Part shown: in pieces, positions 23,901-26,900 of the stretch
How positions within the stretch are numbered: position 1 is the first letter of the stretch
Layout: the number at the start of each line of letters is the position of its first letter
Assembly: GCA_025453525.1 (NCBI GenBank)
Contig: JALOQD010000006.1
Location: 1 to 36,957 of the forward strand
Origin: Myxococcota bacterium
GTDB taxonomy: Bacteria; Myxococcota_A; Polyangia; JAAYKL01
Direction: 5' to 3'
DNA: 36,957 bases
The notes under the pieces: generated by a model
The model's database searches: none
What the model saw: only the letters and a program-made list of their open reading frames with translations
What the model was told of the DNA's origin: nothing
Program-made: the position numbers and the translations under genes

Positions 23901-26900
23901 TTGCTGCAGGAGCCGCAGTGGGCTAAGCTCGCAAGATTTGCATCCTCGTCCGTCTTTCCGTCGCAATCGTCGTCCACGCCGTTGCACTCGTCGTCCGAGC
24001 CCGCGGCTTCGCACGTTCCGCTCTCCGTCCCGGTGCCATCGGTATCGGTGCTCGTTCCGTCTGTTCCGCCCGTGCCACTCGTGTCCGTACCGCCCGTGTC
24101 CGTGCCTGTCGTGTCCGTTCCATCGGTATTGCCCAAACCGCCGAACTCAAAAGGCTCCACCTGGCAGCCCAGGGACATGAACAGAGCGAGAGCTCCGAGC
24201 CCTACCGCGAGCGCCTTGCCTCGCGGTCGCCGAGCCCGCAGCAGCACGGCGATCCCGGTCAGCACTACGAGCCACAACCAGCCCAGGGTCGACCCACTGC
24301 GTCCGGGTGTCGCGGCGCACAAACAGCCGCCTGCGCCCGTGGCCAGAACCTTGGTCAGCTCATTCTCCTCCACGCCCGGCACCTCGTCTGTATCGACGGG
24401 TTCTGTACCAGGGTTGCTGTCTGTCGCCGAGGTGGTCGTATCATCGTCTGTGGCATCCGTACTCGGGCCGCCTCCGCCTGGCTCGTAGTCTAACGCGTAG
24501 CACGAGCCGTCCACGCACCGACGACCATTGGGGCAGTCCACGTTGCGGCAGGGATCCGCTACGCACTGTCCGTCTTTGCACACCTCATAGTACGCACACA
24601 CCACGCCCCAGCAGTCCCCGCGCTCGCACTTGCCTGTCTGCGGATGGCACGACAGACCCACGTCGCACACCTTACCGGCGCAGGGGTCGTCCACGCACTC
24701 GCCGTCGCGGCAGGACACCGGGCAGTCCTGGTTGACGCATGCGTCCACGCACGTCCCGTCCTTACAGTACGCATCGCCCTCGCACGTCGTGCTCGAACAC
24801 GGGTCGTCCACGCACGTCCCGTCCTCGCACTTCTTCCCGCTCTCGCAGAAAGTGGCGTAACATCCAGGCCCAGCCTCCACGCACTGGGCGCTGACCTTTT
24901 TGTTCGTCACCACGGCGATGCACACCTCGGTGGGCTGACACTCCATGCCCTCGCAGGGGCGCAGGCATTCCTTGCGAAGCGCGTCGCACTTGCACGGCGG
25001 GCTGGCGCCCTCGTCCGAGCAGTAGTACGGGTTGTCCGCGCACAAGAGAGCGTCCTTGGTCCCAACAGCGCACACGTCGTCGAGGCACACCCTCATCGTC
25101 TCGCCCGTGCCCGGATTCGTCACCTCTTCGCAGGTCATGCCTCCAGGACACGAGGCCTCTTGTCCAGCGCACGGCGGCGCGCACTCGCCTTCCACGCACA
25201 GATTGCCCGACGGGCACTCCAAGTCGAGCTCCTCGTCCGTCGCACCGTCGCAGTCATCGTCCACGCCGTTGCACGCCTCCACGCCCGGGCCAGGCGCATC
25301 GCACTTCCAGTCGCAATCGATACACCGCATCGCTCCTTCGGTGCAGGCGCCGATCGCTCCGACGTCCGGGTTGTATACGCATGCCGCGCCAGCGGGGATA
25401 TCCTCGTCTGTCTGACCGTCGCAGTCATCGTCTTTGCAATTGCATATCTCCACCTCTAGCGGCTCAACGACTCCCACGCACTCGAGATCACAGGTGCCAA
25501 GGTCAGGGTCGCATTCGCAGACCTTTGCACCCTTCTTGCACTCTCCCAACTCTCCCCCGCCCTCCAACCCGCACGGCTCTCCCACGCGCTGTACCTCCTC
25601 GTCCGTATCCCAGTCCTGCAAGCCGTCGCAGTCGTCGTCATCTCCGTTGCACACCTCTAACTGCGGCCCTTGACCACCCACGCACCTCTGCTGACCAGCC
25701 ACGCACACATACGTGCCAGACGTGCAAATGCCTTCCTCCGGATTAGGTATGTTCAAGTCTGAACAGGTCGGTGGCGTGAACACCAGGTCTTCGTCTATCG
25801 CGCCGTCGCAGTCGTCGTCGAGCAGGTTGCAGCTCTCGGGCGACGGCCCTTTTGACCCCTGACAGTCTCCCCACTTCCCAGCCACGCACCGCGAAAGGCC
25901 CTCTTGGCACTCTCCCTGGCTCGGATCCGTCGTGCACCCATCGCCCTCGCACCCACCGCACGGCGCCACGAGTCCCTCGTCGGTCAGCGAATCGCAATTG
26001 TTGTCCAGGTTGTCGCACGTCTCGGCCGTTGGCGCATTCGGAGCGATGCACTCTCCGCTCCCCGTTTCCACGCCCGTGCAACAGGCGATCGTCTTCCCTC
26101 CCCCTGTCGCGCTGACGCACATGAGCCTCGCTTCTAGGCACACCCCTTCCTGCTTTCTGCACACCTGACCCACGAGCGCCAAACCCTCATCCGTCTCTCC
26201 ATCGCAGTCGTTGTCCTCCCCATCGCACACCTCGAGGCTCGGAGGTATCGAACCCACGCATTCCTTCCACACCGCATGCCCTGCGAGCGCCGCAGCGGCG
26301 CTATCGCAGCGGGCAATGCCTTCTCGACAGCGACCCTCGTCTGGCCCTGCTGGGCAAACCACGGGGTCGGGGTCGTCGCACCCGCCGCAGGGGATCGTCA
26401 CCTCGTCCGTGATCCCGTCGCAGTCGTCGTCGAGACCATTGCAGATCTCGGGCTGCGGCCCGACCTCGCCTTCACACTCGTCCTGCCACACCGGCGTCCC
26501 CTGGGCGATGGATGCGGCGATATCGCAGTGACGTACACCTTGCTCGCACTGGCCCGCCTTGGGACCAGCCGGGCACTCGGCCGGCACGTCGCATCCACCG
26601 CATACCTCGGTGACTTCATCGGTGGAGCCATCGCAGTCGTCATCGAGACCATTGCAGATCTCGTCTTGCGGGATGACCTCTCCCTCGCAGTCGCTGAAGG
26701 TGTCCGGGGCAATGCAATCGTACGTCCCTGGATGGCAGATGCCTTGGGCAGGATAGGCAAAGCCCGTCCAACACTCGATATCGTAGAGCTCATCGGTCTC
26801 GCCGTCGCAGTCGTTGTCATATCCGTCGCAGCTCTCCTCTTGGGGAGTGGTGGCTGCTTCGCAATCGTCGAGAACCCCCCCTGTGCACAGAGCCTGGCCT

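What the first reader, a model, noticed from the sequence alone, without database searches (positions are those of the whole stretch)
24160..24340. In-frame read-through of a MYXO-CTERM-like anchor into a lipoprotein signal peptide inside the 2921-aa ORF
Around codon 1805 the ORF reads GGCLCAATPGRSG-STLGWLWLVVLTGIAVLLRARRPRG. A Cys-containing motif, a TM helix and a basic cluster is how MYXO-CTERM (myxosortase substrate) proteins normally end. With no stop, it continues as GKALAVGLGALALFMSLGCQVEPFEFGGLGNTDGTDTTGTDTGGTDTSG, which looks like a lipoprotein signal plus a typical Thr/Asp/Gly linker. An in-frame GTG at 24245-24247 would give MLLRARRPRGKALAVGLGALALFMSLGCQ. Either two adjacent surface-protein genes are fused (real fusion, lost stop, or sequencing error), or one polypeptide is processed at both a myxosortase site and a signal peptidase II site to yield two differently anchored proteins. 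The same hydrophobic/basic stretch could serve as the tail of one and the signal of the other. A dual-processed polyprotein of this type would be unusual.
Basis: partly seen in the sequence, partly recalled or inferred. Interest (0 to 1): 0.85.

Follow-up and report, generated by a model that had tools for sequence, protein, structure and literature searches.

The report
Conserved double-anchor surface polyprotein in myxobacteria
In this myxobacterial genome two cell-surface proteins that are separate genes in some relatives are made as one long chain whose joint carries the sorting tail of the first and the lipid-anchor signal of the second, and at least 80 related genes in 17 bacterial families have the same joint, so it is a conserved design and probably a natural polyprotein cut in two at the membrane.

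Summary
The ORF window:20972-29737(-) (2921 aa) runs without a stop from a MYXO-CTERM tail (GGCLC, aa 1803-1807) through a basic loop into a lipoprotein signal (lipobox Cys 1858). It is not an error or a lost stop. The genome has a second fused copy (3119 aa). A junction profile finds 80 stop-free copies in 49 genomes, 40 genera and 17 families of the class. In the 29-row junction alignment only two residues are invariant: the MYXO-CTERM Cys and the lipobox Cys. In some lineages the pair is split into two genes, mostly overlapping by ATGA or TGATG; there the lipoprotein has an ATG, with a ribosome site in 9 of 10. In the fused genes that site is gone (ATG plus site in 2 of 80, no usable start in 26), so the second half must be made by reading on. 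MrtX-like myxosortase, LspA and type II secretion are in the genome. Best reading: a secreted tandem precursor cut by myxosortase and by LspA into two differently anchored surface proteins. The fusion and its conservation are shown; the cutting is inferred. One internal MYXO-CTERM protein (MXAN_5598) has been published as atypical; this lipoprotein class is larger.

The parts
20972..29737 (-). single ORF, 2921 aa, 302 kDa: the fused precursor
   Evidence: AGGAGGT just before its ATG
27458..28390 (-). VWA-like domain of first half (DTSGSM at aa 456, LLTDGTE at aa 685)
   Evidence: sequence motifs; no Pfam hit at E<=0.1
25223..27427 (-). MopE-type Cys/Asp repeats of first half
   Evidence: PF11617, 18 stretches over the whole protein; positions
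24227..24331 (-). MYXO-CTERM tail: GGCLC motif, TM1, basic cluster
   Evidence: TIGR03901 15.8 bits; Cys 1807 is an invariant column in A3
24245..24247 (-). in-frame GTG proposed as internal start: no ribosome site, not conserved
24164..24223 (-). internal lipoprotein signal: TM2 and lipobox SLG-C1858
   Evidence: Cys is an invariant column in A3; residue before Cys G/A/S in 80 of 80 loci
21548..23986 (-). MopE-type repeats of second half
   Evidence: PF11617; positions
20987..21415 (-). FGE/SUMF1-like C-terminal domain of second half
   Evidence: PF03781 E 6.7e-13; PDB 1y4j sulfatase modifying factor 2, E 2.7e-9

Best explanation
The gene encodes a secreted tandem precursor made as one chain. 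Shown: one conserved reading frame, two cysteine-centred processing signals back to back, and loss of the internal translation start relative to the split form. Inferred: the N-terminal signal sends the first half (about 182 kDa) through Sec; TM1 of the MYXO-CTERM stops in the inner membrane with the basic loop in the cytoplasm; TM2 re-enters as an internal signal and exports the second half (about 111 kDa). Myxosortase MrtX cuts after the Cys of GGCLC, leaving the first half with a lipidated C-terminus for type II secretion to the surface. Lgt and LspA lipidate and cut at Cys 1858, leaving the second half as an N-terminally lipidated protein. A hairpin of about 50 residues is left in the membrane. 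Two anchored proteins arise in fixed one-to-one ratio, in place of the translationally coupled gene pair used by other lineages.
For: Paralogue in the same genome fused the same way. Junction profile: 80 stop-free loci, 49 genomes, 40 genera, 17 families, all with MopE-type halves where enough sequence is held. Only invariant alignment columns are the two cysteines. Split orthologues keep the same two signals but with ATG in 10 of 10, SD in 9 of 10, stop/start overlapping by 4 or 1 nt in 8 of 10; fused loci have ATG+SD in 2 of 80 and no usable start in 26 (Fisher p 8e-10). Own genome has an MrtX homologue at 141.6 bits with EExxxR, H and HxxxN motifs, LspA and GspD. MrtX is shown by experiment to cut MYXO-CTERM in M. 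xanthus, and its authors propose that the internal motif of MXAN_5598 is cut too (PMC11980579).
Against: No protein data. The MYXO-CTERM of the window scores below the family cut-off and the MrtX homologue below its 180-bit cut-off. The -3 residue of the lipobox is S in the window, not the usual L; across the 80 it is L in only 30. Hairpin pN/pS is 0.5-0.9, so selection on its exact letters is weak. LspA acting on a signal with a large N-terminal extension rests on analogy.
Confidence: 0.72

Rival explanations
1. Real fusion, but the protein stays one uncut chain held in the inner membrane by the hairpin; the sorting motifs are relics of the once separate genes.
For: Cutting is not shown; exact hairpin letters are weakly constrained; the window's tail is below the MYXO-CTERM cut-off.
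Against: Relic motifs should decay, yet both cysteines are invariant columns across the 29 aligned junctions and a G/A/S-Cys lipobox is present in 80 of 80 loci; enzymes for both cuts are in the genome.
Confidence: 0.15
2. Two proteins made separately: the second half is started inside the ORF (for example at GTG 24245-24247), so the open frame is a coincidence of overlapping genes.
For: A GTG is present in the window; split relatives have overlapping genes with coupled translation.
Against: No usable start in 26 of 80 fused loci, including the window's own paralogue; ATG with ribosome site in 2 of 80 against 9 of 10 split genes.
Confidence: 0.06
3. Only one of the two sites is cut (myxosortase alone or LspA alone), giving one anchored protein plus a second one held by the remaining TM.
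For: Some lipobox positions are atypical; the MrtX homologue is below its family cut-off.
Against: Both cysteines are equally invariant.
Confidence: 0.06
4. Sequencing error or lost stop at this one locus.
For: Draft genome of 492 contigs.
Against: The paralogue and 78 further loci in other genomes show the same open junction.
Confidence: 0.01

Closest known systems
MXAN_5598 of Myxococcus xanthus (internal MYXO-CTERM; PMC11980579)
   Same: Adhesin-like first half, MYXO-CTERM in mid-protein, then a second exported part; the authors suggest gene fusion and propose cutting. The window's genome has such a protein too (L017, 2094 aa).
   Different: Its second half is a barrel plus OmpA protein. 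Here the second half is a lipoprotein with a lipobox, MopE repeats and an FGE-like or propeller-like domain, and the design is spread over 17 families.
TraA/TraB of M. xanthus
   Same: MYXO-CTERM protein with an overlapping gene for its envelope partner (as described in PMC11980579).
   Different: Two ORFs, as in our split orthologues; not fused.
ArtA substrate of Haloferax volcanii with a mid-protein tripartite signal (Abdul Halim 2017, cited in PMC11980579; paper itself not held)
   Same: C-terminal type sorting signal used away from the C-terminus.
   Different: Archaeosortase; no second lipoprotein signal known to me.
Bradyrhizobium FbcH cytochrome b/c1 polyprotein (from memory, not checked)
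   Same: Bacterial precursor split at an internal signal sequence.
   Different: Signal peptidase I, respiratory proteins, no sortase-like step.

Membership tests
MYXO-CTERM proteins (myxosortase substrates) | signature motif with invariant Cys | tested here: met
   GGCLC; Cys 1807 is an invariant column
MYXO-CTERM proteins (myxosortase substrates) | TM helix then Arg-rich cluster | tested here: met
   TM1 then RARRPRGK
MYXO-CTERM proteins (myxosortase substrates) | TIGR03901 score over 20 bits | tested here: not met
   15.8 bits for the window; 26.6, 21.9 and 22.1 bits for fused orthologues in G004 and G013
MYXO-CTERM proteins (myxosortase substrates) | tail at the C-terminus | tested here: not met
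   1114 residues follow Cys 1807; it is an internal variant
MYXO-CTERM proteins (myxosortase substrates) | cut by MrtX | not testable with these tools
   MrtX homologue with catalytic motifs present
Bacterial lipoprotein | n-region, h-region, lipobox with Cys | tested here: inconclusive
   Present and Cys invariant, but the -3 residue is atypical and the signal is internal
Bacterial lipoprotein | own translation start for the signal | tested here: not met
   met in the split orthologues
Bacterial lipoprotein | lipidation and LspA cut | not testable with these tools
   LspA present
Natural fusion gene (against error or pseudogene) | same open junction in independent genomes | tested here: met
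   80 loci, 40 genera

The most novel reading that the evidence does not exclude
Myxobacteria of this class use an internal MYXO-CTERM followed by a second signal peptide as a general separator for surface polyproteins: myxosortase and LspA (or signal peptidase I in the barrel type) cut one chain into two differently anchored proteins in fixed ratio, and lineages switch repeatedly between this and an ATGA-coupled gene pair.
Probability: 0.6. Interest if true: 0.78.

Novelty: new variant of a known kind. Interest (0 to 1): 0.68.

Why it matters
Polyproteins cut at an internal signal are rare in bacteria, and mid-protein C-terminal sorting tags were noted in myxobacteria only as rare cases. Here the tandem of a sortase-like tail and a lipoprotein signal is widespread and conserved, which gives a directly testable substrate for the open questions of MYXO-CTERM lipidation and of whether Lgt and LspA accept an internal signal. 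It also warns annotators: the second protein is hidden inside the first.

Tried and rejected
Sequencing error or lost stop: rejected by the relatives. Internal GTG start: rejected. The search for related loci with the junction alignments failed for lack of a conserved stretch; the single-protein scan gave named Polyangium loci, whose MYXO-CTERM ends near a stop in all hits scanned, and one named fused Sandaracinaceae MAG (L249). A tree of the FGE-like domain (60 rows, 12 split) needs 8 changes between fused and split, but many deep forks are weak and split loci were hand-picked, so direction and true number are open. A third fusion in this genome (L016) has a frameshift after the lipobox and no relatives in the family; not used as evidence. 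Outside the class only one genome gave a partial match at E<=1e-8 in a sample of the phylum. No structure was predicted: the question is processing, which a fold would not settle.

Full report
Observation. The minus-strand ORF 29737-20972 (2921 aa) is open from end to end. Near aa 1803 it reads ELTKVLATGAGGCLCAATPGRSGSTLGWLWLVVLTGIAVLLRARRPRGKALAVGLGALALFMSLGCQVEPFEF and goes on into a T/D/G linker. The first-stage reader described it correctly. The GTG at 24245-24247 is aa 1831.

Domains. First half: signal peptide, Gly-rich region, VWA-like part (by motif), MopE repeats, Cys-rich stretch, linker, MYXO-CTERM. Second half: lipobox, linker, MopE repeats (PF11617) and an FGE/SUMF1-like end (PF03781).

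Own genome. The window lies in a 492-contig draft of 5.9 Mb. A TIGR03901 search found 15 loose matches. Several are ordinary terminal tails with a stop close behind. Two with a good continuation are internal: the window itself, and L001/L017, a 2094-aa adhesin - MYXO-CTERM - Sec signal - barrel - OmpA protein, the type published as MXAN_5598. A second copy of the window's protein, G000:C298 (3119-aa open frame, 66% identical over the first part of the second half), is fused in the same way. MrtX-like protease with EEVFYR, H and HAASN motifs, LspA and GspD are present.

Relatives. Searching the second half in 59 relatives gave same-family genomes with matches from the junction on, in frames of 1600-3500 aa. 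Reading them showed the same TM - basic loop - TM - GC joint. A profile of the joint over 290 class genomes found it in many other families. A broader profile, A3, whose only invariant columns are the two cysteines, gave 80 stop-free full-length matches in 49 of 318 genomes, 40 genera and 17 families. These counts are lower bounds because the list was cut. A3 was built from fused junctions, so the share of fused against split pairs is not estimated. Two of the 80 (L189, L190) look nearly identical. Loci were fetched and read: wherever enough sequence is held, both halves carry MopE repeats. Second halves end in one of two unrelated ways, FGE-like or propeller-like (the propeller label is by eye).

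Split relatives. In other loci the first ORF ends just after the basic cluster and the lipoprotein starts in another frame. Of 10 measured, all start with ATG, 9 have a Shine-Dalgarno match, 6 overlap by 4 nt, 2 by 1 nt, and 2 lie 11 nt apart. Fused loci keep the same signals but not the start: ATG plus Shine-Dalgarno in 2 of 80, any plausible ATG/GTG/TTG in 54, none in 26 spread over 11 families (Fisher p 8e-10). The thresholds for a plausible start are mine and are stated in that script. The ORF's own ATG has AGGAGGT upstream. So in the fused form, at least in those 26, the second half is made by continued translation.

Selection. Cys-to-Cys length varies from 43 to 84 residues across loci, yet the phase is kept and full-length junction matches never contain a stop in the rows listed, while wrong frames do. 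Within the hairpin pN/pS is 0.51-0.93, 0.52 for the window against its paralogue: hydrophobicity and charge rather than exact letters are kept.

Mechanism. MrtX cuts MYXO-CTERM proteins after export in M. xanthus and in E. coli, and its authors propose that an internal motif is cut too (PMC11980579). The joint here has the topology needed for both cuts: TM1 out-to-in, basic loop inside, TM2 in-to-out (inferred from the charges). The predicted products are 182 kDa and 111 kDa with a 50-residue remnant. Both cuts are inference; everything before them is sequence evidence.

Second kind. The barrel/OmpA type with a signal-peptidase-I-like second signal is also fused in several families (L323, L325, L326, L328, L334, L335, L339, L345, L346, L350, L352) and split in L343. 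So two unrelated partners follow an internal MYXO-CTERM.

Names. L249 (Sandaracinaceae MAG, 4218-aa frame) is fused and has the contig length of G262's hit. Polyangium isolates carry copies whose MYXO-CTERM ends near a stop. G154, a single contig of 10,327,335 bp with one fused and one split copy, fits S. amylolyticus DSM 53668 (10.33 Mb, single contig; PMC5010890); that identity is inferred.

Novelty. Internal MYXO-CTERM is known in one published protein and called rare. The MYXO-CTERM plus lipoprotein-signal tandem, its spread, the loss of the internal start and the swap with overlapping gene pairs were not found in the papers searched. Haft 2024, which defined the myxosortases, is not held, so prior mention there cannot be excluded.

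Noticed in passing
L016 (G000:C50), 4509-7893, minus strand: A third MYXO-CTERM-like tail reads into a lipoprotein signal (LCSLRRKRGVSGTLVLLCAGLAALGACQS), but the rest of the lipoprotein is in another frame: a frameshift directly after the lipobox. No match in the family.
   Followed up: partly
L323, L325, L326, L328, L334, L335, L339, L345, L346, L350, L352: Barrel/OmpA proteins fused behind an internal MYXO-CTERM with signal-peptidase-I-like signals are also common, not just MXAN_5598.
   Followed up: partly
L004, L006, L009, L082, L091, L092, L093, L098: Short MYXO-CTERM-like tails in this family that stop within or right after a short hydrophobic stretch, without the long TM and basic cluster.
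   Followed up: no
C-halves of L162-L225: The lipoprotein half ends in either an FGE-like domain or a propeller-like domain behind the same junction: modular.
   Followed up: partly
G154 (L207 fused at 9.990 Mb, L229 split at 8.909 Mb): One complete genome carries both the fused and the split form.
   Followed up: partly
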